Source: Medakamo hakoo (Eukaryota; Chlorophyta; Trebouxiophyceae; Coccomyxaceae). From it: a stretch of DNA of 64,000 nucleotides. Below are positions 12,482-42,565 of this stretch, piece by piece. The notes below the pieces were generated by a model, which was not told where the DNA came from, made no database searches, and saw only the letters and a list, made by a program, of their open reading frames with translations. The DNA lies in assembly GCA_026636295.1 (NCBI GenBank), contig CP089463.1:434001-498000 (forward strand), written 5' to 3'. Both the position numbers and the translations under genes were made by a program. The first letter of the stretch is position 1. The number at the start of each line of letters is the position of its first letter.

Positions 12482-12515
<34 letters not shown>

Positions 12516-12739
12516 TGCCCGCGGCCGCGTTCCTGCCCGCGCACCAGGGCGACCGCGCCGCGGCCGGGCCCGCCGTCCCGGCCCCTCCCTACCCGCCGCC
12601 TGGCCGGCCGGGCGCGCCCCGCCTGCGGTCGACGGCGGAACTGCACGCGCGCGCGCCCGCGGGCGGGCCGGCGGGCGAGGTCGCCGGCGGCGGCCTGGCG
12701 TCCCCGCCGGCCGTGCGCTCCCCGCCCGGGAGGATGCGC

Positions 12740-12779
<40 letters not shown>

Positions 12780-15700: not shown

Positions 15701-16498
15701 GGCGGCGGGGGGCGCCGCCGCGGCGGCGGCGGCCCGTCCGACCCGTCCGATCCCGCGGGCGCGCATGCCCCACCCAACCTGGCCGAACTGAACGACCTGC
15801 TCCGGTACGGCGCGGCCGACCTGTTCCGGGATGACGACCTGCCGGACGGCGGGGAGCAAGGCGGTGGCGGCGGCGGTGGTGGTGAGGACGGCGGCGGCGG
15901 CGACGCAGCCGCCACCGCCGAAGGCAAGCCGCCCGTCGATGGCCAGGCCGCCACCACGCGCGTCGCTCGCACGGGCGGCATCGCCCACGCCGAAGCCGCG
16001 GCTGGTCGCACGGGCGGCGCCCTGGGCGGCCGGGCGGCGGCCGTGCGCATCGTATGGGACGAGCCTGCCATCGAGCGGTTGCTCGACCGCAGCGACCTGG
16101 AGGCAGCGGCGGCGGACGCCGCGGCGAAAGCGGCGGCGGCGGTGGAAGGCGACACGCCTGCCGAACCGGAGGATGACGACGACTTTCTGGCCGCCTTCCG
16201 CGTCGCCCGCTTCCAGACGGCGGCGGGCGGGCCGGGCGAGGACGAGGCGGCGGCCGCCGCCGCGGCGGAGCGCGCGGCTGAAGCCGCGGCGGCCGCGGCC
16301 GCGGCCGCCGCCGCCACGGCCGGGGCGGAGGAGGCGCTGCGCGAGCCTTCCCCTTCCCGCCCCGCCGACCCGGCGTTCTGGGACGCCCTGTTGGCCGACC
16401 AGCACGCGGCGTTGCTGGCGGCGGAGGGCGGCGGCGGCGACCTGGGCAAGGGCGCGCGCGGGCGCGGGCGCGGCAAGGTCAATTATGCGGAAGCGCCG

Positions 16499-16530
<32 letters not shown>

Positions 16531-17962
16531 GTTTGAAGACCAGGAGGAGGAGGAGGAGGAAGAGGAGGAGGCAGGTGAGGACGACGGTGACGAAGGCGCC
16601 GCCGAAGCCCAAAAGCGGGGCGGCGTGCCGGCGCTGCGGGCGGAACCAGCGCTGGCGGCGTGGGCGGCGGCCCACGCCGCGCGCGTCCAGCGCGCCTCGC
16701 CCCACCCCCGCCCGCGCGGCCGGCCGGGGAGGCGGGCCGCGGGCGCGGCCGACCCGCTGACCGACGCGGCCCGGTCCCTGGTCCTGGAGCCGGAGACCGG
16801 GCGCCCGCTCTCCGTGTGCGGCGTGAGCGCCGAGCAGGGCACCGTCCTGCTGGCGGGGCTGCTGTCGCTGGGTGCGGCCGCGTTTGCCGACGCGGCGGCC
16901 CGCGCCCGCGTCGCGGCCCGCGCGTCCGTCTCGCCGCCCACCGCCCGGCGGTGGGCGCGCGCCGCCATTGCGGCGCTGTCCGTCCTGGCCGCGGCCCCGC
17001 CCCCGCCGCCGCAGGCGCGGGCGGGCAACGAGTCTCCACCGCCGCCGCCGCGCCTGCCCGACCCCCTGGTCGTCGCCCTGTTTGGCAGCGCGTCCACGGC
17101 CGAAATGACGGTCGAGCACGTCGGCCTGATGGACGCGGTGCACGAAGCGGGGCGGCGGGCGGGCGCCGCCGCCGCCGTCGCGGAGGCCCAGCACCGGGCG
17201 GGCGGCGGGCGGGGCGAGGGCGACCCCGCCTACGTGTGGGCCGCGCTGCTGGGCCTGCCGCCCGGCCCCGGCGGGGCGCCGCCGCCCCTCCCGCCCGGCG
17301 CGGCCATCGACCCGGGCCCGCCCGGCTGGTCGCCCGTCCACGACGCCGCACTCGTCCGGGGCGTGTGCGCGCACGGGTGGGGCCGGTGGGCGGACGTCGC
17401 GGCCGAGGTGGGGTTGGAGCTCTCGGGGGGCGCGCCCGGGTCCGAGGTGTCCGACTTCTTGCGGGCGCGCCTGCGGGAGGTGGCGGGCGCGACCGCGGCC
17501 GCGGCCGCCGCGTCCGCCGCCGCCGCCGTCAGCCGGGGCATCCACCTGTCCGGCAGCGTGCGGAGTGGGCCGGGGTGGGGCTCGGCGTCCGCGTGGGCCG
17601 ACCGCCTGCCGTGCTTGAGCTCCCTGGCGCTGGAGCGCCGCCGCCGCGCGGTGCAGAGCGCCGTCGACGCCGCCCGGCGGCGGCAGGCGGCCGTGGCGGC
17701 GCGCGCGGCGGAAGACAAGGCGGGGCCGGCGGCGCTGGCTCAAGCTCACCAGCGCCAGGCCGCGCTGCAAGCCGCGGCGGCGGCGGCGGCTGAAACGCCC
17801 GAGGCAGCGGCGGCCGCGGCCGGTGGCCAACCACCCGAGGCAGTTGCGTCTCCACCGCCACCGGGTGGCGCCGCTCTCCAGCTGGAGGACGACGGCGCGC
17901 AGCAGCAACGCGCGTCGCCCTCCCCACCGAACAATGGCGCCATGGCCTGGCAGTCAATCTGA
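11459..17962 (+). CDS. CHD3/PICKLE-type chromatin remodeler
   Basis: Exons 11459-13690 and 13823-17962 give 2123 residues. The 132-bp intron (CAG|GTGAGG ... CAACAG) is a multiple of three and stop-free. Domain order: PHD finger at about 210-257 (CAACGS...CDACPRALH...CPACAD), two degenerate chromodomains at about 446-494 and 557-610, SNF2 ATPase from about 710 with DEMGLGKT (motif I) just before the intron, DEAHR (motif II, about 932), TGTPVQNG (motif III), and helicase C through STRAGGLGINLASAD and HRLGQTRPV near 1350. The remaining 770 residues include acidic, Ala-rich and SANT-like Trp-containing stretches. PHD-chromo-chromo-SNF2 is the CHD3/Mi-2/PICKLE layout; these slide nucleosomes and, in plants, silence developmental genes. 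Nuclear. Long Pro, Gly and Ala runs are genome-typical. Confidence 0.93.
13774..13809. repeat. (CA)n run at the 3' end of the CHD intron
   Basis: CA repeat with two variant units, ending 13 nt before the acceptor CAACAG at 13817-13822. Confidence 0.85.
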
Positions 17963-18144: not shown

Positions 18145-21001
18145 TCAAGGCTCCGGACCCGGCACGTCGACCCGGCGGAAAAGGTACAGGTACGCCAAGT
18201 CCAGGGGCGGGCCCGCGGCCGAGGCGGCGACCTTGTCGTCGTTCAGGATGACCCACCGCCCGCCGCGCAGGGCGTGGGCCACGTAGTGCCCGCAGCCCGT
18301 GTGGGCGCCCAAGTGGGAGACGGTGGCGACGAGCGTGTACTTGGCCGGGCCGTCATCGGGCGGGGAGGACGGCTGGGCGGAGGCGGGCGCGTCGGCGGGC
18401 GCGTGCCCGCCCCCGCCGCTCACTGCCGCGACCGCGGCATCCAGGTCGTCCGCGTGCGAGAACAGCCAGTCGCCCGCGCGTTCGGCGGACCCGCCGGTGG
18501 CGGCCAGGGCGGCCGTGGCTTGGACGGCCGTGAAACCCATGGCCGTCAGCATTTCCACGGCGGCCGGGTCGGCGGCGGGCGCGCCGCCGCCGCCGGCGCC
18601 GCCAGCTGGCGGCGCCGCCGGCGCAGCGGGAGGGGAGTCAAAGTCCGCGTCGCCCGCGTGTTCGAGCGCCCACTCCACCGCGGCTTCGGGGCCACGACCC
18701 GCCGTCGCTAACGCAGCGCGGGCCGCACCATTGGCAGAAAAGCCCATGCCTTCCACGGCCGCAACGACGGCGGCGTCGGTGGTTGGGGCGGGCGGACCGG
18801 GCGCGGGCTCGGCCGCCGGCCCACCATCCTCGGGCTGCAACACTTCACCCGGCTGGGGCCCGCCCGGCGCCCGCAGCCCGCTCAGGTCCAGCTTCGTGGG
18901 GACGGGCACCAACGCTTCCAGCTTGCGCGGCCGCCACTGGTCGTCCACGTAGTACCGGCGCAGCGAGACGGCCAGGAAGGGCGGGAAGGTGGCAAAGCGC
19001 GCGCGCCGCGTCGCGGTCACGGCCTCCCCCCCCGCCGCCGCGGACAGGTAGCCGTCCACGGGTTCGTCGGCCGCCCAGGCGCTCAGGCAGGCGTCAAAGG
19101 GGACGATGGGCAGCACAGGCGGCTTGGGGCTCGTGGACGGAGCGGCGGCGTCGGCTGCCGGCGCGCCGCCGGCGGCGGCCGTGCTGTCGCCCCCTTCCGC
19201 GCAGATGAACGCGTCCGCGCCCGCTTCCGCCATCTTGGCGCGTTTGGCCTCCCGGTCCGCCGCGGCCGCCACAGCGTCAGCATTCGTGGCCGCAGACAGC
19301 GGAATGTCCAGGGACAGCACGTTGTGGCCGTCCGTCGTCGAGTAGCGGACGGCGCCCGTCTTGCCACAGGCAATCCGTTCTTCGACCGCAAAGCGCAGCG
19401 CGTCGGCCGTCGGGCGCTGGCCGGCAGGCAACCGCCCGGCCGCCACCGCCCCACGCTCCGCCCGGGTCAGGGCGTTGAGCAGGTGTTGCAAGAATTCCAC
19501 CGCGTCCTGCTGGCGTGACGACGAAAACTCTGGGTGGCCTTTCCCGATCAGCGTTTTGAAGGCGGCCGGGCGAACGGCGTCGGCCGCGGCGGGCGGCGCC
19601 TTGGGGCCGGGAGCGGCGGACGCGTCGGCGGGCTCGGCAGGCGAGGACCGCACGGGCGCCGGCGCGGCCGCCGTGCGGGCGGTGGCCAGGGCGACGCCGA
19701 CCTTGGCGAGCTGGGACGGCAGGTCGCCGGCCAGGTCGGGCGGCGCGGCGCCGAAAATCGCGGACGCCGCGTCCGCGCTCCCGTACCGTTCCCGCAGGCC
19801 CGGCACCGCCCACAGGGCTTGCAACACCGAATTCATGTAGCAGGAATTGCCCAGGTTGACAAAGCCGACGTGGCCCGGGCCGGACAGGGGTTCCAGGGCC
19901 CCGCCGCCCCCCTCCGTGATGCGCGCGCTCTCAAACGCGAGGTTCGCGTCGACGCTCAGTTCAGCCATCGTCTTCTCCGTCTTTTCGCACGCCTGGCGGT
20001 TGATGCCCCACCAGGCCAGGTGGTCCGCCAGCTGCGGGTCCGTCACCAGGTCGTCCTCGTCCGCCGCGTAAGAATAGACGTCCGCGCCCGACGCCGTGAT
20101 GGTCCCCAGCTTGACGACCAGCGGAAACTTTTTGCCGGTCGCTTCGTAGTGGCGGAGCGCGGCGCCGTTCCCGCCGCTCCCGTCCCAGTTGGCCCGGCCC
20201 GACCCAATGAAGCCCGTGGACAGGTTGAGCCACAAGTTGTCCGTGACGCCCGTCTCATCGCACTTCCAGCACGCCGGGTCGGACGGGATGCGGCGGCCGT
20301 GGGCGCCCAGCCCCTCCTCCAGCTGGCGCAGGTCGGCCGCGTAGCGGGACACCTTGCGCGGCTCGTCGTCCTCCCAGGCGGCGACGGCGTCGAGCGTCCC
20401 CGCGTCGTCCGCGGACGCGACGGCCGCCAGGACGGCCTGGATGTCGTCCGGTAAAGAAGGGCAGGGCAGGGGCAGGGCCACCCGGCCGGGCATGGCAACC
20501 AGGGCGGCGCTTTTCAGCGTGCGCGTGGGCGGCCCGCCCTCCGCGGAAAACCCGCCCGGCAGCCCGATGGCCAGGCGTTCAGGCTTCGCCGCCGCCGCTT
20601 CGGCTTCTTCGTCCACGACTTTGGTCCAGGCCTCGTGCAGGTACAGGCGGGCGCCGGACCGGGACGCGTCCAGGGCGAGGTGGTCGGCGCCGGCGGACTG
20701 TGAGTGTGTGTGTGTGTGGTGAGGGGATGGATGGGCGGGTGAGGAGGGTGGAAGACACCCGAACGAATGCAATCGGGCAAGTTTTTGCGACGCACCGCAC
20801 GCCCTTCACACTGCCACGCCTCCTTACCTGCCACGTGCTCAGGTTCAGATACAGCCCACCGGGCGACAGCGGGGTGTCAAAGCCGTAGACAGACTCGTCC
20901 TTGTGGACGCGGGCGCCAGGAGGTGGGGCGCGCAGCGGCGTGGCCGCAGCGGCTTCAAGGACGGCGGCCAGGGCCGCGTCGGTGGAGGTGGTGGTCGCCA
21001 T
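18145..21001 (-). CDS. UBP14: Ubiquitin-specific protease, UBP14/USP5 (isopeptidase T) type
   Basis: Exons 21001-20828 and 20697-18145 encode 908 residues. Exon 1 (MATTTSTDAALAAV) carries DESVYGFDTPLSPGGLYLNL, the N-terminal UBP14/USP5 block. The zinc-finger UBP domain follows at about 190-260 (CWKCDETGVTDNLWLNL...YEATGKKFPLVVKL), which in the family grips the free C-terminus of unanchored ubiquitin. The catalytic Cys box is NLGNSCYMNSVLQ near 340, two UBA domains lie near 640-780, and the His box GHYVAHALRGGRWVILND is near 858. All hallmarks of isopeptidase T, which disassembles free polyubiquitin for recycling, are present. Cytosol or nucleus. Donor CAG|GTAAGG; acceptor CTCACAG after a CA run. 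Head-to-head with the HAD phosphatase. Confidence 0.93.
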
Positions 21002-22397: not shown

Positions 22398-24536
22398 TCA
22401 ATAACGCCGGTGGAAGAACCCGGCCGCCGCGGGGCTGCCAATGCCGCCCCCCACCCGGTCGTACAGCGCCTTGACGGCCGGGTTGTCGTGCGCGGCCTGG
22501 ACGGCCGCGCGATCCCCGGCCGCGTGCACCGCGTCCGCCCGCCGCGCCAGGATGGCCGGGTCGGCCGACCGGGGCTGGCCGCCGCCGCCGACACAGCCCG
22601 CCGGACATGCCATCACTTCCACGAAATGGTAGGGCGTCGACGCACCTTCCGCTTGCAGCCGTTCCAGCAGGTCGCGCGCGTGACCGACGCCCGCGACGAC
22701 GGCGGCGCGGAGCGTGCGCGGCACGCCCGCCGCCGCCGCGGCTTCGGTCGGCAGGTCCAGGCTTATCTCCTTGACGCCGGCCAGGCCGCGCGCGGAGTTC
22801 AGGGCGCCCGGAGGCGGCGGCTTTCCAGTGATCCAGGCATACACGGAGCGGAGCGCGGCTTCCGTGACGCCGCCGGATGCGCCGAACAACGCGCCGGCCC
22901 CGCTCGCGGCGCCCAGCGGCGAATCAAACGGTTGGGGCGGCAGGTCGGGGAGCGACAGCCCCGCCGTGCGGGCCCTCACCAGCCGGCCGAGTTCCCGGGT
23001 GGTGAGGACCGCGTCCACAGGCGGGCGCCGGGCCCCGCTGCCTTTGGGCGTCGTGTCCAAAAACAGGCGCTCGTCCGCCGCCTCGATCTTTTTGGCCGTG
23101 CAGGGCATGGCCGAGACGAGGAAGAGGGAGGCCAGGTCGGACGGGGACAGGCCCGCGGCCGCCGCGCCGACCGCCAGGGCGGGCGTTTTGGCGACCACGC
23201 CCAGCGCGATGTGCGGGCTCTTGGTCGTGGACAGGTGCGGGAGCAGGGCGGGCGCGCCACGCTCCACCATGCCGACCCACCCCGGGCAACAGGACGAGAG
23301 GAGCGGCAGCGGGCCCGGCGCGGCGGCGGCGGCGGCGCGGTCGGGGGCGCGTCCGCGGCCGCCGGCCGCGCGGACGCGCGCCACCAGCTCGGCCGCTTCC
23401 TCGACCGCGACGACGTCCGCCGCCAGCCCCGTGTCGAAGACGAAGTCAAAGCCCGCGGCTTTCAGGGCGGACACAAGCTGGCCGGGCGCCAGCGCGCCCG
23501 GCGCGCCGCCCAACTCCTCGCCCAGCGAGACGACGACCGCGGGCGCGAGCTGGACGGCGACGGGTGTGCGCCTCGCGTCCAGCACCTCGGCCACCCCCCT
23601 CCACGCGGGCGTCGCTTCAATCGCGCCGGTGGGGCAAAAGGACGCGCACTGCCCGCACGACGCGCACGCCCACTGCTGGCCGGCGGCGGGCGGAGACGGC
23701 GGGGTGTCCACCAGGTCGGACCCGCCCACCGTCGCGGGGCCTGACCCGCCCCCCCGGCCGGCCATGCCCAGCACGCTCGCGCCGGCCAGGAGCGAGCACG
23801 CGCTCACGCACCGCCCGCAGTGGACGCACTTGTCCAGGTCGATGGTGATGGCCGGCGAGTGGTAGGCAGTGCGCGGGGCGGCGTGCTGCCCGCGCCCCCC
23901 GCGCCCGCGGCCCCCGGCCCCGCCCTCGTCCCCGTCCGTCTCGTCTTCCCACTCGTGGTGGAGGGACCTGGGCAGCAACGCCCGCCCGCCGCCCACGTTG
24001 AACCGCGCCAGCAGGGCCGCCAGCTCGCAGTGGCCGGCCGCCTCGCAGCGCGGGCAGTCCGAGTGGTCGCCCTCGGCCTTCAACAGCTCCAGGACGGCGC
24101 GCACGGCGTCGCGCACGCGGCCGCTGTCCGTCACGACGGCCGACCCCTCCACGGCCGGCGTCCTGCACGCGGGGACCAGGCGCCCGTCGCCCGCTTCGAC
24201 CAGGCAGACCCGGCACGTCCCGCCGGAGCCGGGCAGGCGCGGGTGCGCGCACAGCGTGGGGATGGACACGCCTGCAGCACGCGCGGCTTCCAGGATGGTG
24301 AGGCCGGCGGGGATGGTGGTGCGAATGCCGTTGACGGACAGGGAGATGAGCGGGTGGGTGGTGGTGGTGGTGGCCGACGGCGGCGCTGGTGCCGCGGTGG
24401 TCGACGTGCCGCGACGACCACCGTGTCGTCCGCGACGAGACAGGAGAGGGCATGCGTCGCCGCCCGCAGCCCACGCCGCGCGTTCCAGCTCCTTCGCCCA
24501 CGCGGGGCTGTGTAGCAGGGACAAGGCTCGCCTCAT
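22398..24536 (-). CDS. HYDA: [FeFe]-hydrogenase with full NuoG-like N-terminal FeS module
   Basis: Single exon, 712 residues from the ATG at 24536; the first 45 residues (MRRALSLLHSPAWAKELER...) are Arg-rich, amphipathic and lack acids early on, so an organelle presequence is likely. Domains: plant-ferredoxin-like [2Fe-2S] with C96, C108, C111, C124; His-ligated [4Fe-4S] with H158, C161, C164, C170; a two-[4Fe-4S] domain with CVHCGRCVSAC (237-247) and CASCGQCASFC (291-301); then the H-cluster domain with L1 SSCCPGWV (C416 proton relay, C417 ligand), L2 MPCTAKK (C479) and L3 FVEVMACPAGCVGGGGQP (C644, C648). All catalytic ligands are present, so it should make or oxidise H2. The modular layout is that of clostridial CpI (M3 type); Chlamydomonas-type HydA lacks the N-terminal clusters. 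Head-to-head with NF-YB. Confidence 0.93.
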   Translation of the reverse strand: MRRALSLLHSPAWAKELERAAWAAGGDACPLLSRRGRHGGRRGTSTTAAPAPPSATTTTTHPLISLSVNGIRTTIPAGLTILEAARAAGVSIPTLCAHPRLPGSGGTCRVCLVEAGDGRLVPACRTPAVEGSAVVTDSGRVRDAVRAVLELLKAEGDHSDCPRCEAAGHCELAALLARFNVGGGRALLPRSLHHEWEDETDGDEGGAGGRGRGGRGQHAAPRTAYHSPAITIDLDKCVHCGRCVSACSLLAGASVLGMAGRGGGSGPATVGGSDLVDTPPSPPAAGQQWACASCGQCASFCPTGAIEATPAWRGVAEVLDARRTPVAVQLAPAVVVSLGEELGGAPGALAPGQLVSALKAAGFDFVFDTGLAADVVAVEEAAELVARVRAAGGRGRAPDRAAAAAAPGPLPLLSSCCPGWVGMVERGAPALLPHLSTTKSPHIALGVVAKTPALAVGAAAAGLSPSDLASLFLVSAMPCTAKKIEAADERLFLDTTPKGSGARRPPVDAVLTTRELGRLVRARTAGLSLPDLPPQPFDSPLGAASGAGALFGASGGVTEAALRSVYAWITGKPPPPGALNSARGLAGVKEISLDLPTEAAAAAGVPRTLRAAVVAGVGHARDLLERLQAEGASTPYHFVEVMACPAGCVGGGGQPRSADPAILARRADAVHAAGDRAAVQAAHDNPAVKALYDRVGGGIGSPAAAGFFHRRY

Positions 24537-24886: not shown

Positions 24887-25440
24887 ATGGGCGACGCCGG
24901 CGAGGGCGGCGACGCCCGCGAGCAGGATCGCTTCCTGCCGGTGAGTTCCTGAGCGTGTGGGGGCGGGTGTAGGGGTTGGTTTGCTGCGGCGGCGAGGAGA
25001 AGAGCGCGCGGCGCACAGTCGCTTGCTCGCTCGCTCGCCACCACCACCCACCACCACCACGCCCCTCATCCACCCACCCCCACCGCCCCCCCCTCCCCCT
25101 CCCAACCTAGATCGCCAACATCTCCCGCATCATGAAAAAAGGCTTGCCCGCCTCCGCCAAGATCGCGAAAGACTCCAAAGAGTGCGTCCAAGAATGCATC
25201 TCCGAGTTCCTGTCCTTCGTCACGTCCGAGGCGTCGGACAAGTGCCAGCGCGAAAAGCGCAAAACCATCAACGGCGACGACCTGTTGTGGGCCATGTCCA
25301 CGCTGGGCTTTGAGGATTACGTGGAACCGCTGAAGGTGTACTTGGCCAAGTACCGGGAGGCGGAGAAGGCGGCCCTGCCGAACAAAGCGGGCGCGGGTGG
25401 GGCCGGGGCGTCGAGCTCCGGTGCGGTGGATGGAGAGTGA
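24887..25440 (+). CDS. NF-YB: NF-YB (HAP3), CCAAT-box histone-fold subunit
   Basis: Exons 24887-24940 and 25111-25440 give 127 residues. The core starts at DRFLP (end of exon 1) and continues [20 protein letters not shown], then [20 protein letters not shown] and [21 protein letters not shown], the three-helix histone fold that pairs with NF-YC and then NF-YA to bind CCAAT. The residue that is Asp in LEC1-type NF-YBs is Lys here (KIAKDSKE), so it is the general rather than LEC1 class. A short Gly/Ser tail follows. Intron of 170 bp, phase 0, placed between the first two core residues blocks as in many plant NF-YB genes. Nuclear. Head-to-head with the hydrogenase. Confidence 0.95.
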
Positions 25441-26197: not shown

Positions 26198-29100
26198 TCA
26201 ACCACCACCACCGCCGCCGCTGCTGCAGCCGCTGCTGGTGCTGCCCTGCCCATCCTCTTCCGCACCATCCCCGCCGCCGCCGTCGACACCACCCCCGTCC
26301 CCATTCCCAAATTCGGCCCTCAACGCCTCCAGCGCGCCCGCCACGTCCGCATTGGCCGCGCCCAAGCCCGCCACGTTTTTAAAGGAGAAATTCAGAAACG
26401 CGTTGCCGGGCGCAAAGGCAGCCGCGGCGGCGGCGGCCGCACTGGAGTCAGTGCGGACCAGGTGTGGAGGCAGCGAGGACGCGGCCGTGTCGGCGGGCGG
26501 GTCGGTCTCACTGCCGGCCGGGTGGACGGCCGAGGCGGCGGCGGCGATGGAAGGCAGAGGCGGCGCCGCGGCCGGGCGTCCCTCCCCTCCCACGCCCGCG
26601 CCCGCCACCACGGCCAGCGGGGGAGGCGGCGCGCGCAGGGCGCCCCGGGCGGCCGTCCACGGGGTAGGCGCGCCAAGGATGGAGGCGGCGGCCGGCGCCG
26701 CGCCACCTCCACCACCCCCTCCACCTCCACCACCGCCACCACCGACGCCGGCGCCGTCCGCGTCCAGGGCCATGGACCCCGCCGTCACGCCCCGCCGGGG
26801 CGCAAAGTAGGCCGTGTCCTCCTCGCACGCCAGGTCGGGGACAAAGGGCGGGGACAGCGCGGCTTTGGACGCCGCCAGCGCGGCCCAGTCCACGCCGTCA
26901 AACCAGGGGTGCGCCTGGACGGCGGCCGCGCCGGCCGGGCCCGCGCCCAGGCGGGCGCACGGGTCGGGGTCCAACAGGCGGTCAATCAGGTCGACGCACT
27001 CGGGGCTGAGTTGGACGGCGTCCTCGCCGCTCGGCCAGCGAATGGCGCGCGCTAACACATTGGCGAAGACGCCCTCCGGCGTCTCGGCCGCAAAGGGCGG
27101 CACGCCCGCCACGCACTCAAACAGGACCGCGCCAAGCGACCACCAGTCGGCCGACGGGCCGTGCGAGGCCGACCCGCCCAGCAGGAGTTCGGGGGCCAGG
27201 TAGTCGGGCGTGCCGACGGCGCGTGGGTTGTGTGGGGTGGGCGGCGCGGGCGCGGGCGCGGTCGCCGCGCTCGCGCCGCCGGACGGGGGTGAGCGCCGGC
27301 GCCGGGCAGGCGCGGCCCCCGGCGGACCGGCCGGTCCGCCGTCCCCACCACCCCCGTCCAGCCCGGCCGCCCGGTCCACCACGCCCACCGTCGACAGCCC
27401 AAAGTCCGCCAGCTTGACGTGGCCGTCCCCGCCGATGAGCAGGTTGTCCGGCTTCACGTCCCGGTGCACAATGCCCCGGGCGTGGCAGTAGGACAGGGCG
27501 AGGACGGCTTCCGCGATGTACGGGCGGGCCGACCGCTCGTCCAGCGCGCCGACGCCGGCCAGCAGGGACGCCAGGTCCCCGCCCGCCGCGTACTCCATGA
27601 CCAGGTACACGGCCGTCGGACTGGTGAACGCCCAGTAAAACCGGACGACGAACGGGTTGTCCGCCGCCGCCAGGATGTCCCGCTCCGTCACGACGCCCGC
27701 GACCGCGTTTTTGCGGACGAGGTCGGCCTTGCGCATGACCTTGACGGCGTACAGGTCGCCCGTCGCGCGCTTGCGGGCCAGGTACACCCGGCCGTACGCG
27801 CCGCGGGAGATGGGTTTGAGGACCTCGAAGTCCGCGATGGAGACGCCGGCGCCGGTGGTGGACGGCGTCGGGAGCGGTGCCGGGGACGGGGGGGGTGGGA
27901 GGGCGCACGGCGGCGTGGGCGACGGCGGGCCGGGCGTCGGTGCCCGGCCGCCCGCCGCGCGGCGCGCGGAGCGAGCAATTTTCAGCGCCCGCCGGCCCAG
28001 GGCGTCCGCGACGGAGTGGGGCGGGGACGCGGCCACGGCGGCCCGCAGGCCGGCCACCGCGGCGTCCAGGGGCAGGCCTCCAGCGGCGGCGGCCGCAGCA
28101 GACGCCACGCCCGCCCGGGCGGCGGACGCGGCGGCCGCGTCCACGCCCGGCCCGCCTTCCGTGCCCCGCCACTGTGCGGCCAGGTCAGCTAGGGCGGACA
28201 GGGCTGCTGCCGCCGCCCCTGTGGCGTCGGGCGACGGTGAAGCCGGGCCGGGCAGCGCCACGCCACTCGCCGCAACGACCGCCGCCACCACCGCCGGCGG
28301 CAGGGCCGCCTCCACCGCCGCGCACGCCGCGGTGTGGGCTGCCAGGGCGGACGCAGGCCGGACGCGGTCCTCGCAGATGCGGCAGACGGGCGCGGGTCGC
28401 AGGCCGGGCGAGGGCGACGCGGACCGAGGGTGTCGCGGCTGAGGGGTGGTGGCCGTGGCCGTGGTCGCGGGCCGGCCGCCGCCGCCACCACCGCCGCGTG
28501 GGGAGGAGCCGGCCGACCAGGTGGGGGCGGCCGCCACGGCGGGCGAGGCCGGGGATGGCAAGGCTGCGCCCAGGGCGGCCGCCACGGCCAGCGGCGGCGG
28601 GCGGCGGGCGGTGGGTGGTGGCGGCGGCGCCGCGGCTGTTGCGGGAGCAGCAGCAGCCACCGCGGGCGACGCGGCGCGCGGCGCGTCCGCGGGCCGCAAC
28701 CGCGACGGCGGCGGCGCCCGGGCCGCGTTTCCCGGTAAAGCAGACGGAGGCGGCGTGCGTGGCAGGCCCGCTGGCTCGGGCGACGCGGGCAGGGAGCGGC
28801 TCGGCGGCCGCGGAGGGGGGAGGGCGGGCAGTGGGGGCGGGGAGGGCGTCGCCGTCGGCGGCCGGATGGCGGGCGCCCCATCCTCGCTCGCCCGCGCAGC
28901 AGCAACGGTGGCCGCTCTCCGAGCCCCGGGCGACACAGTCAGCGACCGCAGGGCCGCCGCCAGGCGGGCGGTGAAGGGCGTGGGCGGGGTCGGGCGGCGG
29001 GGCGCGGGCGTCGCACCGCTGCAGCTCCCGCGCCCGCCACCGCCGGACGACGACCGCCGGCCCGTCGCGGCCGCGTCCAGGGCGGCTTCCAACGTCGTGA

Positions 29101-30414
29101 CAACGCCGCGCGAGGTGGGAGACGCCGGCGAAGCGCTGGGGTGGAGGGCGGCGGGCGCGGCGGGACCGGGCGGGCGGGGCGGGCGGAATGCTGCGGGCTG
29201 CCCCTGCGCCGCCGCCCCCGGCCGGGACGCCGCCCGGCCGCGGCTCCACCAAGACGGCTTGCGATGGCGTGGTGCAGGGCTGGCCGATGAGGTTGGCTGC
29301 TGTGGCGCCGGCTGGGGTGCGGCCGTGGCGGGCGCTGCAGGCCGCGGCGCGCGCGCCAGGTGCGGCCGCGCCGCGGCTGCGACCGTGGCTGGCGCAGCCA
29401 CAGCCGCAGCGGTCGGACCTGGCACAGGCCACGCGACGGCCACCCCACGCGTCGGCGCGACCAGGCGGGACACCCGGGACAGCGCAAACAGCAGGCGGGT
29501 AGCGGCGGACCGGACGGCCGCGCCGTCCTGCCCCGGCGGCGCGGCCCGCCGCTCCGCGTCCGCCGCATCCACCGCGGCCTGGACGCGCGCTCTGAGAGTG
29601 GACGCCGGCAGGCCGGCTGTCTCAGCCGCTAGTGCAGCCAGCCGGCCCAGCGCCGCGTGGGTGCCGGCCCCCCCCGCCCCGAGACCGGCCACAAAGGCCC
29701 GCAGCTCGGCGTCCAGGCGCGCGTGCGCAGCACCGAACGCGGCCGACCCCAGGCGCGGGCCCCACACCGCTGACGCGGGCGAGGCGGGAGCAGCAGCAGT
29801 CGCCGCCTGCTGTTGGTGCACCGTGCGCCTGGCGGGCGAGCCGGCCGCCGCTGTGGCGCCGCGCGGGCCAAAGGGCAGGGCGGGGAGGGGGGTCGGCGCG
29901 GCCGCGACGGCAAACCGGCCCGACGGCGACGGCGACATGCCGGCGTCGAGGGCGATGCCGCACCGTGGTGTCAAGCCGCCGGAACCGGATCCAGACCCGC
30001 CGCGGGGCGTGGAGGCGGGCGACCGTGGCGTGGCGGGCGTGGCGGCCTTTTTTGGATGGAGGGGGAGAAAGTTTCTCGTGAGGTCGAGAAAAATTTTCAA
30101 GATTGGGAGCCTGGCGCCCACCCCATGACAGCCCTCTCTCTCACCTCCTCGCTGCCGGCCGACCCGCCGCGCGTGTGGCGGGGCGTGCACGCCCCGGAAG
30201 ACGGGCGGTCCACGTCGCCCGCCGCGCTGGGCGGGCGGGGCGACGCCGGCGCGGCGGGCGCGGCCGGCTCCAGCGCCAGCGGCGGCACGGCGCTCGCGTC
30301 CGCCACAGCGCGCAGGGCGACGATGGCCGCGCCTGTGGGGTGGGGACTACAACTCGCGCCCAGAGGCTGCTCCTCGCCCGCCGGCGGCCGGCCGGACGGC
30401 GGGCGGGACGCCAT
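26198..30414 (-). CDS. IRE/MAST(Greatwall)-class AGC protein kinase
   Basis: Two exons, 30414-30145 and 30046-26198, give about 1372 residues; the donor GAG|GTGAGA is canonical, the acceptor AAAAAAG|GCC is weak but is the only one restoring frame. A long Ala/Pro-rich N-terminus precedes a small zinc-finger-like motif CRICEDRV...AAHTAAC near 640, found in plant IRE kinases. The kinase domain starts near 822 (FEVLKPISRGAYGRVYLARK) with AVKVMRK, HRDVKPDNLL (near 953), DFGLST and TPDYLAPELL. The DFG-APE segment is about 67 residues, longer than usual; MASTL/Greatwall and Rim15 have even larger inserts here. Family members phosphorylate endosulfines, and the plant members (IRE, IREH1) affect root hair growth. 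It is head-to-head with an endosulfine gene. Confidence 0.88.
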
Positions 30415-30631
30415 CTCGCTTTCGCTTTTTTTTTTCGTTTTTCGGACTGAGCCGACAGACGCGCTTTCTTTTCTTTCGCGACCAAAAAAATACAAGCGCC
30501 GGCCTCCCCGCGCTTCCTCACACACGCGACCGCCGCGCCCGACCCGCTCCTTGACAAGCGCACTGCGATAAGAAAGGAAAAAAGCCGCGAGCTTTAGGCC
30601 GAGTCTCTCCCACTCTGCCACGCGCGAACGC
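30415..30631. promoter_or_regulatory. Divergent promoter region, Greatwall-class kinase / endosulfine
   Basis: 217 bp between opposed start codons. Contains a T-run at 30425-30434, an A-run at 30483-30489 and an AT-richer stretch at 30564-30596. A shared promoter is inferred from orientation and spacing. Confidence 0.5.
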
Positions 30632-31205
30632 ATGCAGCAGCCGGGCCCGCCCCACGCCCCACCGCCGCCTCCCGGCCCGGCGGCGGGACACCAGGTGCGT
30701 GGAGGCGTCTTGAGCACGCGTGCCGAGTGAATGAACGACAAACCGCCGGCCAGCTCGTTCCGTTGTCTCCTGCTCCCCCACGCGCGCACCTGAACCTCTC
30801 TCCCCCCGTCCCCCCACCCCTCCATCCCCACAGCCCCCGCTCGATGAGGAAGCCGCCCAGGAAGCCGCCCTGCGGGCCAAGTACGGCGGCCTGATCCCCA
30901 AGAAAATCGGCCTGCCCAAAGACCACCGGTTCTTCGATTCCGCGGACTGGGCGCTGTCCAAGCAGCAGCAGCAACAGGCGGCGGCGGCGGCGGCGGCTCC
31001 GCGCCCGGCGGCCGTCCCGCTGGGCGCCCTGCCGCCCCGCTTGGCGCCGTCCCACGGCCCGGGCCCGGGCGCCCCTGCGGCGGGCGCTGGCATGCCGGCG
31101 TCTGTGCTCGCCCCTCCCAAGCTGGAGCCCGTGACCCGGCCGCGGCCCGGGCCCTCGCACCTGCACCCGCACCTGGGCGGTGGTGGGGGTGGGGGTGGGC
31201 ATTGA
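30632..31205 (+). CDS. ENSA: Endosulfine (ENSA/ARPP19/Igo-type phosphatase regulator)
   Basis: Exons 30632-30694 and 30834-31205 give 144 residues; donor CAG|GTGCGT, acceptor CCCACAG. After a Pro-rich start the endosulfine core runs EEAAQEAALRAKYGGL (residues 26-41), then PKKIGLPKDHRFF and FDSADW at 55-60. This is the plant-type form of the FDSGDY box whose serine (here Ser57) is phosphorylated by Greatwall/Rim15 kinases to turn the protein into an inhibitor of PP2A-B55. The C-terminal half is Gln, Ala and Pro-rich with no conserved motif. Exon 2 has no internal start, so the gene is easily missed. Cytosol. Tail-to-tail with the PP2C gene. Confidence 0.88.
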
Positions 31206-31351: not shown

Positions 31352-32725
31352 TCATCCTGCCTCGCCGCCCCGGCTCACCCGGCCCAGCGGCCCGTCCGCC
31401 GACGGCGTGGCCGGCCGCGGCGGGCCCATGGAGATGCGGGCGGTGGCGGCGGCGGCAGCGGCGGCAGCGGCCGCCACGGGGTCCACCTCGCCGTCCGCGC
31501 CCGCCGCCACGGCAAACGGGTCCGGCCCGCCCGGCACGCCGTCGAAGCAGAGGATGAGGGCGGTGATGTCGTCCGTGCGCGTCTCGTTGGCCAGCCAGCG
31601 GCGGTACGCCTCGACGACGAGGGCCAGGGCCGCGGCCTGGGGGTCGGACGCCCGGGCCGCCACGAAGTCGACGGCTTCCTGGTTGCCGATGAATTCCCAC
31701 ACGCCGTCCGACGCCAGGATCAAAAACTTGTCGGCGGGCGTCAGGCCGCGGACGCGCACCTCGGCGTCCGGGATGACGCCGATGCGCTCGGCGGCCGCGT
31801 CGCCGATGCTCCGCGTGAACGCGGTGCCCGGGTACAGCGCGTCCGGCATCCACAGGCGCGGCGGGTCGGCGGAGTCGGTGTCCTCGTCCGTCCAGCACGG
31901 CGTGGTCGGGTCCTTCAGGCCTTCCATCTGGTCGAGGGTGAGGACGCGCGCGCCCGCCCTCAACACCCGCTCGTACTCGTCCTTGCGGAAGGGGGTGTGG
32001 TCCCACGACATGGCGACGGCGTCTATGGGACCGGACGGCGCGTGGCGGGAGGCTGAGGTGGACAGACCGGCCGCCGACTCGGACCGGGCCGTCCCCAAGA
32101 CCGCGCGCGAGTCGCCCACGTTGCCGACGTACAGGCGCCGCCCCCTGACCAGCGCCACCAGGGCCGTCGTCCCGCTCATGGAGTCGTCTATGCCACTCCG
32201 GTGCAGCTGGGCGTTGACGGCGCCGGACGCGTCGCGCAGCGCCAGCTCCGGCGCCGCCTTGAACAGGGCGTCCGCCACCAGCGCGGGCGGCAGCGCGGCC
32301 ATCGCAAACTGCGCGGCCGCCGCGCCCGTGGACCCGTGCCCGTCAAAGACGGCGGCCAACAGGGAGTCGGCGTCGCCATTGAACGACGCGTGCGCGCACA
32401 CGGCGTCCTGGTTCGGCTTGTCCGGCGCTTCCGGGTAGTAGCCGCGGAGGGACGCGAAAGCGTACCGCACCGAAAACCCGGACCCGGGCAGGTGCAGGCT
32501 TTGCGTCCCGCGCGAGGACAGCAGGCGCGCCCGGAACTCTGCGGGCGTGAGGGGGCCGTCCGCAGACGACGGCAGGAGGTGGGCGAGCGAGTCCGGGATG
32601 TCGAATGGGTTGGGCCCGTCAGCGTCGGCCTTGCCGTCGGCGCGGCGGCGGCCGCGGGTCGGGAGGCGGGCCAGGGCGCCGCCTGGGCCGCCGCCGCCCG
32701 TGGGTGCGGAGGGGGCGCAGCCCAT
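31352..32725 (-). CDS. PP2C (PPM) Ser/Thr phosphatase with N-myristoylation signal
   Basis: Single exon, 457 residues. MGCAPS at the N-terminus is a strong N-myristoyl/palmitoyl site, so plasma-membrane or endomembrane attachment is likely. PP2C motifs in order: PNQDAV, VFDGHGSTG (metal-binding Asp), MSGTTALVALV, VGNVGDSRAVL, SIGDAAAERIG, LASDGVWEFIGNQEAVDF and TDDITALIL. All metal-ligand aspartates expected for Mn/Mg-dependent catalysis appear intact. An insert rich in Ser/Ala follows DSRAVL. A low-complexity Ala tail follows the domain. Plant PP2Cs with this MGCxxS start are clade-E-like; I infer this only loosely. It is tail-to-tail with endosulfine (146 bp). Confidence 0.9.
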   Translation of the reverse strand: MGCAPSAPTGGGGPGGALARLPTRGRRRADGKADADGPNPFDIPDSLAHLLPSSADGPLTPAEFRARLLSSRGTQSLHLPGSGFSVRYAFASLRGYYPEAPDKPNQDAVCAHASFNGDADSLLAAVFDGHGSTGAAAAQFAMAALPPALVADALFKAAPELALRDASGAVNAQLHRSGIDDSMSGTTALVALVRGRRLYVGNVGDSRAVLGTARSESAAGLSTSASRHAPSGPIDAVAMSWDHTPFRKDEYERVLRAGARVLTLDQMEGLKDPTTPCWTDEDTDSADPPRLWMPDALYPGTAFTRSIGDAAAERIGVIPDAEVRVRGLTPADKFLILASDGVWEFIGNQEAVDFVAARASDPQAAALALVVEAYRRWLANETRTDDITALILCFDGVPGGPDPFAVAAGADGEVDPVAAAAAAAAAATARISMGPPRPATPSADGPLGRVSRGGEAG

Positions 32726-37550: not shown

Positions 37551-40500
37551 TCACGCCGCCTCCTTGTCGCCCGACCCTTTCTTCCCGCCACCACCCCAAA
37601 AACGCGACAGCACCGAGTTGTGCTGCGGCGCCGCGCCACTCCCGCCACCCGCACTCCCGCTCCCCCCACCGCCCCACCCACCGCCCGCAACAGGCGAGCC
37701 CACGGACGCGGCCGCCACGTCCGCCGCCACACGAGCCAAGGAAGACACGATGTCGCCAAAGGACGGGCGCAAGGCCGGCTCCGGGTCCGTGCAGGCTTTG
37801 ATGAGCGCGGCCACCGCGGGCGGCGCGTCCGTCCCCGCCGGCAGGCCCGGCCGCAGCTGGTCCGCCGCGACGGCTTGGGCGACCTGGACGGGCGTCAGCA
37901 GCGCGTCCGCGTACGGCAGGGCCTGGGCCATGATTTCGGCCAGCAGCACGCCGTAGCTCCACACATCCGACGGCGGGCCGTAGACCTCGTGCCGGAACGC
38001 CTCCGGGCTCATGTACTGATACGTCCCCGTCTCGCCTGTGAGGGTCGCCTCATCGCCCGGGCGCAGCCAGCGCGCCAGGCCAAAGTCGGCGATGCGGGGT
38101 TGGCCGCCGCCGTCGATGAGGACGTTGGACGGCTTGAGGTCGCGGTGGAGCAGGGGAGGGTCGGCGCCCGACAGGGCGGCCATGCCGCGGGCGACGCCGA
38201 GCGCCATGCGCAGGCGGGCGGGGAGCGACCGGCGCGGGGCGGGCGAGCCGACGATGCCAGACCCGGCGCCGCTGGAGCCGTGCAACCAGGTTTTGAGGGA
38301 GCCGCCCGGCATGAATTCAGACAGGATCAGGCAAGCGTCGGGCGGCTGCAGCGCCGCGCCCAGGAAGGGCAGCACGTTGGGGTGGCGCACAGACGACAGC
38401 GCCTCCACCTCGCGCAAGAAGCAGGACGCCTCGGACGGGCTGGCCACGCGCACGGCCTTGGACGCGACGTCCGCGCCGCGGTAGGTCGACCGGTGCGTCG
38501 CGCCAAACGCGCCCTCGCCCAGTTTGGCGCCTGTCACGACGGCGGCCGGGTCGACCAGCCACCCCGTCCGCGCGGCTTCGGCGCGGAGGGCGTCCCAGCG
38601 CGCGCCGCGCTGCGGGCCGGCCAGGTTGCCGGCCGCGGCGGCGGCGGCGGCGAGGAGGCGGGTGACGGCCGGGCCGGGCGGCGGCCGCCACGCGCCGCCT
38701 GCGCCGCCCTCGCCGCGTGGGGAGGCCAGCGTGGCGACGGCGACGGCAGCGGCCTTGCGGGCGGCCGCTTCCGACCCCGCGGCCGCTGCGGCGGCCAGGG
38801 CCTCGTCCCGCGCCCTGGCCAAGTCGCTTTCGCGGGCGAGCGCGCGCTGCAGGTCGGCCATCGCATCGTCACGGGCCGCCATCGCGGCGGCCGCACGAGC
38901 TTCCGCGGCCGCCGCGTCGGCTTTGGCAGCCGACGCAGCCGCGCGGGCGGCAGCCGCGTCCGCACGCAAAGCCGCGGCCGCGTCGGCGCCCGCGGCCGCC
39001 GCGTCGGCGCGCGCGCGCTCGGCCGCCGCCCGTCCCGCCTCGCGCAGTTCCGCCTCGGCGGCATCGGCGCGAGCCCGTTCTTTCGCGGCGGCCGTGGTGG
39101 CGGCCGCTGCGTCGCGGCGGGCCGCGTCCAAGTCGGCCTCCAGGCCGGCGACGCGGGCGAAGGCGGCCGCCTCGGCCGCCGCCTGGCGCCGCGCGGCCTC
39201 GCCCACCAACCCTTGCGCCGCGCTCGTCCCGCCCTCCACGGCCGCGACCGCGCGGGCGGCCGCCGCTTCGGCTTCGGCCAGGGCGGCTTCCGCGGCCGTG
39301 CGGGCGGCCGTGTCCCGGGCGGCGGCAGCTTTGGCGGAGGCTTCCCGGGCCAGGGCGTCGGCCGCCTCGGCGCGCGCGTCCTCGGCCGCGGCCTCGGCCA
39401 GGGCCGCCACCTCTTCCGCGTCGGCCGCCCGGGCGTTGGCCGCGGCCACACGCTTGTCGGCGGCGTCGCGGGCAGACCGCGCCGCTTCCTCAGCGGCGAC
39501 GCGGTCCGCCAGGGCAGCAGCCGCGCGGGCTTCGGCCGCCGCCACCGCTTCGGCCGCGCCGGCCTTTGCGGCCGCGGCTTCTTTCCGCGCCGCCGCGGCC
39601 GCCGCGCGCTCGCCCGCCAGCTCGGCCTCCAGGGCATCACGCCGGGCCGCCGCTTCCGCCAGGCCAGCGCCCGCTTCCTGGCCACGAGCCGTCGCGTCGC
39701 TGACGGCGGCTTCCGCGGCAGCCGCACGTTTCAGCGCGGTGGCGGTCTCGTCCTTGGCCGCGTCCCGTTCCTTGGCGGCTTGCCTGGCTGCGGCTTCGGC
39801 GGGGGCCAGCCGGGATTCGGCAGCCGCTGCTGCTGCCTTGGCCGCGGCGGCCGCGGCCTTGGCGCTGACGAGTTCCCCGTCCAGGGACGCCGCGCGGTCG
39901 GCCGCAACGGCCGCCGCCCTGCGCGCGGCAGCCAGCTCGGCCGCGGCTTCACGCGCCGCCGCGTCCGCGGCCGTGGTCGCCGCTTCCAGCCGAGTCGCCA
40001 AGTCCGCGCGCTCGGTTTCCAGGGCGGCCAGCCGGTCGCGGGCCGTGGCAGCCGCTTCTTCGGCGGCGACCAGGCCGGCCTCCAGCTCGGCCGCCCGTTG
40101 CGCGGCACCGTCCGCCCGCTGCCCGGCGGCCGCCGCATCCGCCCGCGCCGCGTCGACGGCGGCCCGTGCTTCCGTGGCTTGCGTCTCCGCTTCGGCCAGG
40201 GCATTGCGGGCGGCGGCAGCGGTGGAGCGGGCGGCAGCCGCGTCGGCGTCGGCCGCCGCGGCGCGCTTGGCGGCCGCGGCCGCTTCTTCCTGGGCAGCCC
40301 GCACGGCCTGCGCCGCGTCCGCGCCGGCCTTGTCCTTCGTCGCCAGCGAGGCCACAAGGGACGCGACTTTGCCTTCCAGGGCGGCGACCTGGGCGCGGCT
40401 GGCCGCAGCCGCCGCGTCGCCCGCTTCGGCCGCCCGGCGTTCGGCGTCGGCCGCGCGCGCGGCGGCCGCAGTGCAGTCCGCCCGGGCCAGGCGCAGTTCG

Positions 40501-42068
40501 GCCTCCAACCGGGAGACGGCCTCGGCATTTTCAGCCGACTCGCGCGGGCTGAGCAGGTTGGGCGTGGCGGCCGCGGACAGCGCGGCAGCGGCGCGTTCGC
40601 GAGCGGCTTGTTCGGCCCTCTCCGCCGCAGCCAGGCGGGCGGCCAGGGAACTCGCCTCCGCTTCGGCCGCGGCCTTGTCCGCGACGGCGGCCGCCAGGCC
40701 GGCCGTGGCCGCCGCCAAAGCCGTCGCTATGGCGTCCGCCTCCGCGTCGAACCGCACTTTCGCGGATGACGCGTCTTCCGCACGGGCGGCTGCGACGGCG
40801 GCGGCGGCCGCGTCTTTGGCAGAGGACACCGCGTCGTCTCGTTCCGCGCGCGCGCGCGCCGCGTCCGCTCGCGCCTCGGCCAGCTGGGCCGCCAGGCCGT
40901 CGCCGCCCGCAGACGCGGCGGCCAAAGCCGCCTCTGCACGAGCTGCTCTGTCGGCAGCCACGGCGCGGTCGTGGGCCAGGGTAGCAGCCCGGGCCCGGGT
41001 CTCGGCTTCCGCTTTTTCAGCGCCGGCCAAGCGGTGGGCGAGCGACTTTGCGTCCGCCAGCGCTGCCGCCGCTTCCTCCCGTGCCGCGTCGGCGGCGCGG
41101 CGGGCGTCGGCCAGGGCGCCCTCCATCGCCGCTGCAGCAGCCGCGGCCGCTTCTCCAGCCGTCGGACCCGCCGTCGCGGCCGCGGCGGCGGCAGCGCCGG
41201 CCGCGGCGGCCTCGGCGCGCGCGGCGTCTCGCTCCACCCGCGCCTGGTCGGCTTCGGCACGGACAGCCGCCAGCTGGGACCGCAGGGCTTCGACGGCGGC
41301 TGGACCGGACGACCCAGACGCCGCCGCCGCTTCCAGCTTGGCGACCGCGTCGTCGGCAGTCTTGCGGGCCGCGGCCTCGGCCGCGGCCGCTTTGGCCGCT
41401 TTGCTCTCTGCCACTGCCGCCCGCCCTTCGGCGGCAGTCAAGTCTTTTTCCACGGCTTCCCGCTCGCGGGCCGCCGCTGTTTTAGCGTCGGCCCGCGCGG
41501 CGATGAGAGCGGCGTTCAGGGCGTCAATTTTACGCTCGGCAGCTTCGGCGGCAGCAGCCGCGGCCGCGGCGGCAGCGCGCGCGTCCTCGACCTCTTTCCG
41601 CGCGGCCGACGCGTCGTGCGAGGACCGCCGTTTTTCAAGGGCGTGTGGCGTTACGGCGGGTGTGAGGGGCTTGGCCGCCGCTTGGGCGGCTGCCCGCTCC
41701 GCGGCCGCAGCGCGTGCTTCGGCCGCTTCGCGTGCCGCGACCTCGCGCGCGGCCGTGGCCAGCGCCGCGTCCCGCTCGCCTGCGGCTTCGGCGGCGACGC
41801 GCACCGCGTCGGCCAAGCCAACAGCAGACCCGTCCATGGCGGACGCGGCCGCGTCGCGGGCAGCCAAGGCGGCAGCAGCAGCGGCCCGGGCTTCGGCCGC
41901 GTCCTCGCGCGCGGCTTTGAGCGCGTTGCGGAGGCCGACGGCCGCGTTGGCCAGGGCGTCGGCTTCGTCGCGCAGGGCCACATTGACGCCCGTGATGGCC
42001 GCCACTTTGGTCTGGAATTCTTCCATGCTGTTTTTTGGGGGTGGGGCGGGGCGGCGAAAAAAAAAGCA

Positions 42069-42121
<53 letters not shown>

Positions 42122-42565
42122 CTGAGAGAGGTTGAGAGAGGTTGAGAGAGGGGAGGGCGGGCCTTCATGCGCGCCGGCGGTGTCCAGCTATCCTCCGCGT
42201 GCGTTGCGCCGCACTGCGCTGGACACTCTGGCGCCTCCCTCGCGCCGCTCCCACGTGCCGGGCACGCCGGGATCCTGGCCAGCCCACCGACACGTCGGCG
42301 GTGGGAGGGAGGCGACGCGTCGGGACGGCGCAGGCCGCGAAAAAAAAGCGGCGCGGAGCTCCGCATGTGCGAACCGCGCTCGCGACAGACTGGCGCGCCG
42401 AAGAGGGCACCCCCCCGGACAGGAAAACATCCACATCCCTCCTCCCACACGCTCCCTGACAAGTCCACACCCTGGCCAAGCTCACCGTTCCTTCAGGCGG
42501 GAGACCTCATCCGCGGACGACTCGCGGCGCAGCATGGAGCTGAGCGCACCGGACAAGCTCTCCAT
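37551..42565 (-). CDS. TKL-type protein kinase with 1,100-residue coiled coil
   Basis: Exons 42565-42486 and 42027-37551 give 1518 residues. Exon 1 (MESLSGALSSMLRRESSADE) ends CG|GTGAGC; exon 2 starts after AAAAAACAG and its C completes the Arg codon, giving a seamless coiled-coil start VSRLKERMEEFQTKV. Residues about 15-1130 are an almost unbroken Ala/Glu/Arg/Asp heptad-rich coiled coil. The kinase domain begins near 1189: GAKLGEGAFGATHRSTYRG, Lys in SKAVRV, HRDLKPSNVL (near 1325), DFGLARWL and TYQYMSPEAF. All catalytic residues are intact; the pattern fits tyrosine-kinase-like, Raf-like plant kinases rather than CDPK or AGC. The coiled coil implies dimerisation or a cytoskeletal scaffold. 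A Gly-rich tail ends KEAA. Head-to-head with the SDR gene. Confidence 0.88.
42072..42152. repeat. (GA)n microsatellite in kinase intron
   Basis: About 24 uninterrupted GA units at 42072-42120, followed by three degenerate GTTGAGAGAG units to about 42152, inside the 458-bp intron of the coiled-coil kinase (a CT tract on its coding strand). Confidence 0.95.

What the first reader, a model, noticed from the sequence alone, without database searches (positions are those of the whole stretch)
26198..31205. Greatwall-class kinase and endosulfine share one divergent promoter
The - strand gene starting at 30414 is an IRE/MAST-class AGC kinase, the plant counterpart of Greatwall (MASTL) and Rim15, with a zinc-finger-like motif and an extended DFG-APE segment. 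The + strand gene starting at 30632 is an endosulfine with the FDSADW box. In animals and yeast these two are kinase and substrate and control PP2A-B55. Here they are head-to-head with only 217 bp between ATGs, so co-expression of an enzyme and its substrate from one promoter is plausible. I know of no report of this linkage in algae, but I cannot search.
Basis: partly seen in the sequence, partly recalled or inferred. Interest (0 to 1): 0.75.

Follow-up and report, generated by a model that had tools for sequence, protein, structure and literature searches.

The report
Linked Greatwall-type kinase and endosulfine genes
In a tiny green alga the gene for a Greatwall-type protein kinase sits back to back with the gene for its expected target, endosulfine, and several related algae also seem to keep the two genes linked, which hints that green organisms use the same phosphatase switch as animals and yeast.

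Summary
Observation confirmed. The window is Medakamo hakoo contig 4 (contig sizes match the published assembly). The minus-strand gene (30414-30145, 30046-26198; 1372 aa) is an IRE/MAST-lineage AGC kinase: best solved match human Greatwall, in a 100/99 clade with it, with the C2HC motif, DFG-APE insertion and hydrophobic motif of plant IRE kinases. The plus-strand gene (30632-31205; 144 aa) is the genome's only detected endosulfine (FDSADW, Ser57). The 217 bp between ATGs is ordinary: 8 of 24 other divergent coding gaps are shorter.

The new evidence is linkage elsewhere: in 5 of 5 decidable cases (four named trebouxiophytes and one unnamed Chlorella-like alga) both genes share a contig or have consecutive gene numbers; in 4 of 4 other green species they do not. 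Distance and orientation there are unknown, and promoter sharing is untested.

Best reading: kinase and substrate of a Greatwall/MAST-endosulfine-PP2A-B55 module (B55 is on contig 5), kept linked. A 2025 review calls it open whether plant MAST kinases act like Greatwall. All 121 listed endosulfine homologues carry alanine where Xenopus Arpp19 G72A gives a stronger, slower-released inhibitor; the searches favoured that word.

The parts
30145..30414 (-). IRE/MAST-lineage kinase, predicted exon 1 (residues 1-90)
   Evidence: open frame, GT donor, best coding score of six frames
30047..30144 (-). kinase intron, 98 nt, predicted
   Evidence: GT..AG ends and frame continuity; no transcript evidence
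26198..30046 (-). kinase exon 2 to the stop codon (residues 91-1372)
   Evidence: Pfam PF00069 192.5 bits
28322..28384 (-). C2HC (zinc-finger-like) motif, residues 645-665
   Evidence: pattern present in 119 of 121 proteins examined, the window's included
26792..27844 (-). kinase catalytic domain and start of the AGC tail
   Evidence: self-match of the 351-aa query at C4:460792-461844; 276 bits to human Greatwall
27188..27406 (-). extended DFG-APE segment, residues 971-1043
   Evidence: DFG to E of APE is 72 residues
30415..30631 (.). shared upstream region between the two ATGs, 217 bp, 57.6% GC against 74.2% in the window
   Evidence: promoter function inferred, not shown
30632..30694 (+). 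endosulfine, predicted exon 1 (residues 1-21)
   Evidence: slightly negative coding score, too short to judge
30695..30833 (+). endosulfine intron, predicted
   Evidence: GT..AG ends and frame continuity
30834..31205 (+). endosulfine exon 2 with the conserved region
   Evidence: PF04667 42.5 bits, cut-off 29.8; only match in the genome
30933..30950 (+). FDSADW core with Ser57, the expected phosphorylation site
   Evidence: site inferred from ENSA/ARPP19

Best explanation
The locus encodes the kinase and the substrate of a Greatwall/MAST-endosulfine-PP2A-B55 module in Medakamo hakoo: its only detected IRE-type MAST-lineage kinase and its only detected endosulfine, physically linked as in other trebouxiophyte algae. 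Shown: the identity of both proteins, the head-to-head arrangement, a B55 gene elsewhere in the genome, and shared-contig or consecutive-number linkage in five other algae. Inferred from animal and yeast work: the kinase phosphorylates Ser57 of the FDSADW box, phospho-endosulfine then occupies the PP2A-B55 active site as a slow substrate, and PP2A-B55 is shut off at mitotic entry or on nutrient loss. Inferred more weakly: the shared upstream region helps matched expression, which would favour keeping the genes linked.
For: Human Greatwall is the best solved match (276 bits; next, CBK1, 225). Tree clade 100/99 with human Greatwall, away from NDR, S6K and PKA. C2HC 119 of 121, GTPDYxAPE 121 of 121, hydrophobic motif 94 of 121, all three in the window kinase. 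Endosulfine above the Pfam cut-off and single. B55 at C5:1028207-1028698, 52-61% identical to a human B55 query. MAST-type kinases elsewhere phosphorylate endosulfines: Mast2 on ENSA S67 (PMC12732324, passages), worm KIN-4 on ENSA-1 (PMC11961639, passages).
Against: Linkage is not seen in Pedinophyceae sp. YPF-701 nor in three flowering plants (4 of 4). Symbiochloris tags are 11 apart, Myrmecia tags thousands apart on a 13-Mb contig. Spacing is ordinary. The ARPP19 helix that docks on B55 is absent from the 121 listed green-type endosulfines, so inhibition of B55 is not assured. No expression or biochemical data.
Confidence: 0.7

Rival explanations
1. Neighbours by inertia: the two genes became linked once in an early trebouxiophyte and have merely not been separated. 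They may act together in trans, but the arrangement brings no shared regulation.
For: 217 bp is ordinary here (8 of 24 other divergent gaps are shorter). Symbiochloris tags 11 apart and Myrmecia tags thousands apart speak for looser linkage. Gene order outside Medakamo was not available, so how often other pairs stay linked is unknown.
Against: Consecutive gene numbers in one Chlorella-like alga and head-to-head genes in Medakamo, from lineages whose kinases are far apart in the tree.
Confidence: 0.45
2. The IRE kinase does another job (growth or cytoskeleton) and endosulfine is phosphorylated by a different kinase; the two genes are neighbours without being partners.
For: Plant IRE kinases are described in connection with root-hair elongation, and their equivalence to Greatwall is called undetermined. 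The T-loop is far shorter than Greatwall's.
Against: Linkage with endosulfine; MAST kinases of mammals and worm phosphorylate endosulfines. Of the best other kinase matches in the genome four were classed, as NDR, phototropin, S6K and PKA; the lower ones were not classed.
Confidence: 0.17
3. The linkage in other algae is partly an artefact: equal contig lengths with far-apart positions, or two EukProt species sharing a naming style.
For: Only contig lengths and gene numbers were seen, no DNA. The Myrmecia contig is 16% of its genome.
Against: Contig lengths differ between the two proteins in four other species, so the value is not a per-genome constant. Both scaffold20 proteins are Chlorella-like. 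Random placement would give about 0.00026 for consecutive numbers and 0.017 for Symbiochloris.
Confidence: 0.12

Closest known systems
Greatwall/MASTL-ENSA/ARPP19-PP2A-B55 (animals) and Rim15-Igo1/2-Cdc55 (budding yeast)
   Same: MAST-lineage AGC kinase, endosulfine with an FDS-x-D core, B55 encoded in the genome.
   Different: DFG-APE segment of about 70 residues instead of several hundred; DSA instead of DSG; shorter spacer without the ARPP19 B55-docking helix. The two genes are linked here; that they are unlinked in human and yeast is recalled, not tested.
Plant IRE/IREH1/IRE3/IRE4 kinases (plant MAST homologues)
   Same: Kinase domain, C2HC motif, GTPDYLAPE, C-terminal hydrophobic motif; no PDZ match.
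   Different: A Gly/Ala/Pro-rich, GC-driven N-terminus; the gene lies next to an endosulfine. Plant targets are not established in the passages read.
MAST kinases acting on endosulfines: mammalian Mast2 and MAST3, C. elegans KIN-4
   Same: Same lineage and expected substrate; KIN-4 shows that a MAST can do Greatwall's work.
   Different: Animal MASTs carry a PDZ domain; no match to one here.
Conserved linkage of circadian clock genes in the green lineage (PMC9516744, search listing and start of abstract only)
   Same: Functionally related regulatory genes kept linked in green genomes.
   Different: Not an enzyme with its substrate.

Membership tests
MAST/Greatwall-lineage AGC kinase, IRE type | AGC kinase domain with intact catalytic motifs (VAVK-type lysine, HRD, DFG, APE) | tested here: met
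   YAVKVMRK 856, HRDVKPDN 951, DFGLS 971, APELL 1041; Pfam 192.5 bits
MAST/Greatwall-lineage AGC kinase, IRE type | Groups with Greatwall and IRE kinases, apart from other AGC kinases | tested here: met
   30-row clade 100/99; long branches flagged; no MAST1-4 or Rim15 in the tree
MAST/Greatwall-lineage AGC kinase, IRE type | Upstream C2HC motif, GTPDYLAPE and C-terminal F-x-x-F-S-F motif | tested here: met
   All three in the window; 119, 121 (as GTPDYxAPE) and 94 of 121 proteins
MAST/Greatwall-lineage AGC kinase, IRE type | DUF1908-like helical domain | not tested
   Not matched by Pfam; no structure was predicted
Greatwall/MASTL in the strict sense | T-loop insertion of several hundred residues | tested here: not met
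   DFG to APE is 72 residues; 460-550 are quoted for MASTL
Endosulfine (PF04667) | Match above the curated cut-off | tested here: met
   42.5 bits against 29.8
Endosulfine as PP2A-B55 inhibitor | FDSGDY core | tested here: inconclusive
   FDSADW: serine, both aspartates and an aromatic kept, Gly replaced by Ala and Tyr by Trp
Endosulfine as PP2A-B55 inhibitor | B55-docking helix F-L-R-x-R-L-x-K before the core | tested here: not met
   0 of 121 listed homologues; not in the window protein by eye; motif from PMC10765524 (passages)
Endosulfine as PP2A-B55 inhibitor | Phosphorylation by the kinase and inhibition of PP2A-B55 | not testable with these tools
   needs biochemistry
Bidirectional promoter pair | Both start sites in the shared region and correlated expression | not testable with these tools
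   no expression data; spacing alone ordinary
Conserved linkage in Trebouxiophyceae | Kinase and endosulfine on one contig or with consecutive gene numbers in other members | tested here: met
   5 of 5 decidable, 1 undecidable (Nannochloris 'desiccata'); distance and orientation unknown

The most novel reading that the evidence does not exclude
Trebouxiophyte algae keep the endosulfine kinase and its substrate as a selected, co-expressed gene pair, which makes IRE kinases the green Greatwall. The green DSA core makes phospho-endosulfine a naturally locked, slowly released PP2A-B55 inhibitor, so that matched dosage of kinase and inhibitor matters more than in animals.
Probability: 0.3. Interest if true: 0.78.

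Novelty: new variant of a known kind. Interest (0 to 1): 0.6.

Why it matters
Whether green organisms have a working Greatwall-endosulfine switch is called undetermined in a 2025 review (PMC11829769, passages). Linkage of the one detected kinase of this lineage with the one detected endosulfine is independent evidence from gene order that they work together, and it offers a small, single-copy system for testing it. The DSA core is a second, sharp prediction: in Xenopus Arpp19 the same glycine-to-alanine change increases B55 binding, slows dephosphorylation in extracts and speeds oocyte maturation (PMC8196004, passages), yet it looks like the normal state in green endosulfines.

Tried and rejected
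Scans for DNA holding the pair: viral contigs with endosulfine alignment A1 (137 pattern stretches, none confirmed) and with kinase P0054 (5 stretches, none confirmed); genome contigs with A1 (29 stretches, none confirmed). These collections hold viruses and prokaryotes, so the misses say nothing about algae. Promoter-like words in the 217 bp were counted and dropped as uninformative. NCBIfam gave nothing for the endosulfine or a B55 fragment. Papers on divergent promoters gave no usable background; the Chlamydomonas gene id Cre06.g307200 is in 0 papers. Considered and rejected: that the kinase is NDR, S6K or PKA; tight spacing as evidence; Nannochloris 'desiccata' as evidence, because the kinase and endosulfine tags come from two strains.

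Rows dropped or unseen: P0041 was left out of the tree because only its first half aligned; 29 of the 120 listed kinases were chosen, 28 used. Only 120 of 345 kinases and 120 of 1647 endosulfines that passed are listed, so most species could not be scored. Of the other kinase matches in the genome (52 matches in all, some of them halves of one gene) only the best were looked at. The phototropin call (L004) rests on reading two LOV-like repeats by eye.
Full report
What the window is. It is contig 4, 434001-498000, of a 15.64-Mb assembly in 16 contigs. The contig sizes (C1 1,473,234 bp; C6 1,246,908 bp) equal the maximum and N50 contig lengths of Medakamo hakoo, a trebouxiophyte alga with 72.7% GC and 7629 predicted nuclear genes (PMC9871001: outline, passages and section 7 read). 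The paper places Medakamo with Choricystis, sister to Botryococcus.

The observation. Kinase exon 1 has the best coding score of six frames. Endosulfine exon 1 is too short to judge and scores slightly negative, but exon 2 has no in-frame ATG before the conserved core, so an upstream exon is needed. A metagenomic relative of the kinase starts at an internal Met whose equivalent here is at 29938, which would give 693 bp. No transcript evidence was available.

The kinase. Human Greatwall is the best solved match (276 bits; CBK1 225). The named relatives among the 120 listed of 345 that passed are green algal and land-plant kinases, many named IRE or IREH1, plus a red alga. A tree of 37 kinase domains (28 listed homologues, the window, 5 solved kinases, 3 own-genome kinases) puts the window with green IREs, two identical red-alga-type rows and human Greatwall at 100/99, apart from NDR, S6K and PKA. 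Long branches were flagged and MAST1-4 and Rim15 are not in it. Of 121 proteins examined (120 listed plus the window) 119 have the C2HC pattern, 121 GTPDYxAPE and 94 the C-terminal hydrophobic motif; the window has all three. It is not Greatwall in the strict sense: DFG to APE is 72 residues, against 460-550 quoted for MASTL. Plant IRE kinases are described as MAST homologues from before the MAST/MASTL split (PMC12024977, passages). In this genome the best other matches are an NDR, a phototropin, an S6K and a PKA-type kinase; lower ones were not classed.

The endosulfine. It passes the Pfam cut-off and is the only match in the genome. Of the 121 homologues listed in two searches 120 have FDSADW and 1 FDSADY. 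Those searches were seeded with this word and many rows are unnamed metagenome proteins, so this is no census; all named ones are green. The animal and yeast core is DSG. In Xenopus Arpp19 G72A increases B55 binding, slows dephosphorylation in extracts and speeds oocyte maturation; the authors note that this mutant behaved somewhat differently between extracts and purified enzyme (PMC8196004, passages). That green endosulfines are natural locked versions is my inference. Against easy transfer of the animal mechanism, the ARPP19 helix F-L-R-x-R-L-x-K that docks on B55 is absent from all 121 (PMC10765524, passages), and the distance from KYG to the core is most often 15 residues against 22 in ARPP19. 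A C-terminal PKLxP..SxL pattern is present in 88 of 121. B55 itself is encoded at one locus on contig 5.

Is the closeness unusual? No. By a simple codon-score gene finder the coding-segment gap is 730 bp; 8 of 24 other divergent gaps are shorter and 1 ties.

Is the linkage conserved? This is the strongest result. Ten species or datasets appear in both lists by name or gene number. Linked, 5: an unnamed EukProt alga with kinase scaffold20.g7617.t1 and endosulfine scaffold20.g7618.t1; Chlorella vulgaris (both 1,096,452 bp); Micractinium conductrix (both 1,044,756 bp); Symbiochloris irregularis (both 1,085,900 bp, tags 009617 and 009606); Myrmecia bisecta (both 13,059,262 bp, tags 002570 and 007932). 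Not linked, 4: Pedinophyceae sp. YPF-701, Salvia splendens, Euphorbia peplus, Protea cynaroides; the last three may have paralogues that were not listed. Undecidable, 1: Nannochloris 'desiccata'. The scaffold20 proteins are Chlorella-like (kinase 51-55% to Micractinium and C. vulgaris; endosulfine 61-64% to Micractinium, C. vulgaris and C. sorokiniana); that they come from one species is inferred from the numbering. Under random placement the chances are about 0.00026 (consecutive numbers), 0.017 (Symbiochloris) and 0.16 (Myrmecia), product about 7e-7 (genome sizes from PMC11126685, passages). The three Chlorella-like cases are counted once there. Distance and orientation outside Medakamo remain unknown.

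How it most likely works. Shown: one detected kinase of the right lineage, one detected endosulfine, a B55 gene, linkage. Inferred: Ser57 phosphorylation, by analogy with Mast2 on ENSA S67 (PMC12732324, passages) and worm KIN-4 on ENSA-1 (PMC11961639, passages); then PP2A-B55 inhibition as in animals and yeast (PMC6941129, passages). Weakest: that linkage serves matched expression.

Novelty. No report of this linkage was seen in the listings of these searches: Greatwall + endosulfine + Arabidopsis + IRE (3 papers), Greatwall + Chlamydomonas + ENSA (4), endosulfine + green algae (4), endosulfine + head-to-head (5), and IREH1/endosulfine/PP2A/MAST kinase (20 of 204 listed). A synteny search was too broad to help: none of its 15 listed papers of 1,497 holds either endosulfine or Greatwall. 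The library lacks most subscription papers. A 2025 review says plants lack Greatwall homologues but have MAST kinases whose functional equivalence remains to be determined (PMC11829769, passages).

Verdict.

Noticed in passing
window 22398-24386 (-), frame open to 24815: [FeFe]-hydrogenase (Fe_hyd_lg_C 210.6 bits) with N-terminal 2Fe-2S and 4Fe-4S domains.
   Followed up: partly
window 25132-25440 (+): NF-Y/CBF-type histone-fold factor (PF00808, 69.1 bits), divergent from the hydrogenase with a coding-segment gap of 724 bp.
   Followed up: no
window 31352-32725 (-): PP2C-type protein phosphatase (121.3 bits), convergent with the endosulfine gene and ending 147 bp beyond its stop codon.
   Followed up: no
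window 11366-17821 (+): SNF2 helicase with PHD finger and chromodomain, a chromatin remodeller.
   Followed up: no
window 18184-20697 (-): Ubiquitin carboxyl-terminal hydrolase with zf-UBP and UBA domains.
   Followed up: no
window 37695-42161 (-): Long protein with a C-terminal protein kinase domain.
   Followed up: no
window 52895-54973 (-): ClpB-type AAA ATPase.
   Followed up: no
proteins P0001-P0003, P0006, P0041, P0042: Close relatives of both proteins in unnamed metagenome sets (kinase 62-72% identical), pointing to further Medakamo-like algae.
   Followed up: no
proteins P0038 and P0040: Two Haematococcus lacustris endosulfine entries are listed with the same 6,605,496-bp contig, perhaps a duplication or double annotation.
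   Followed up: no
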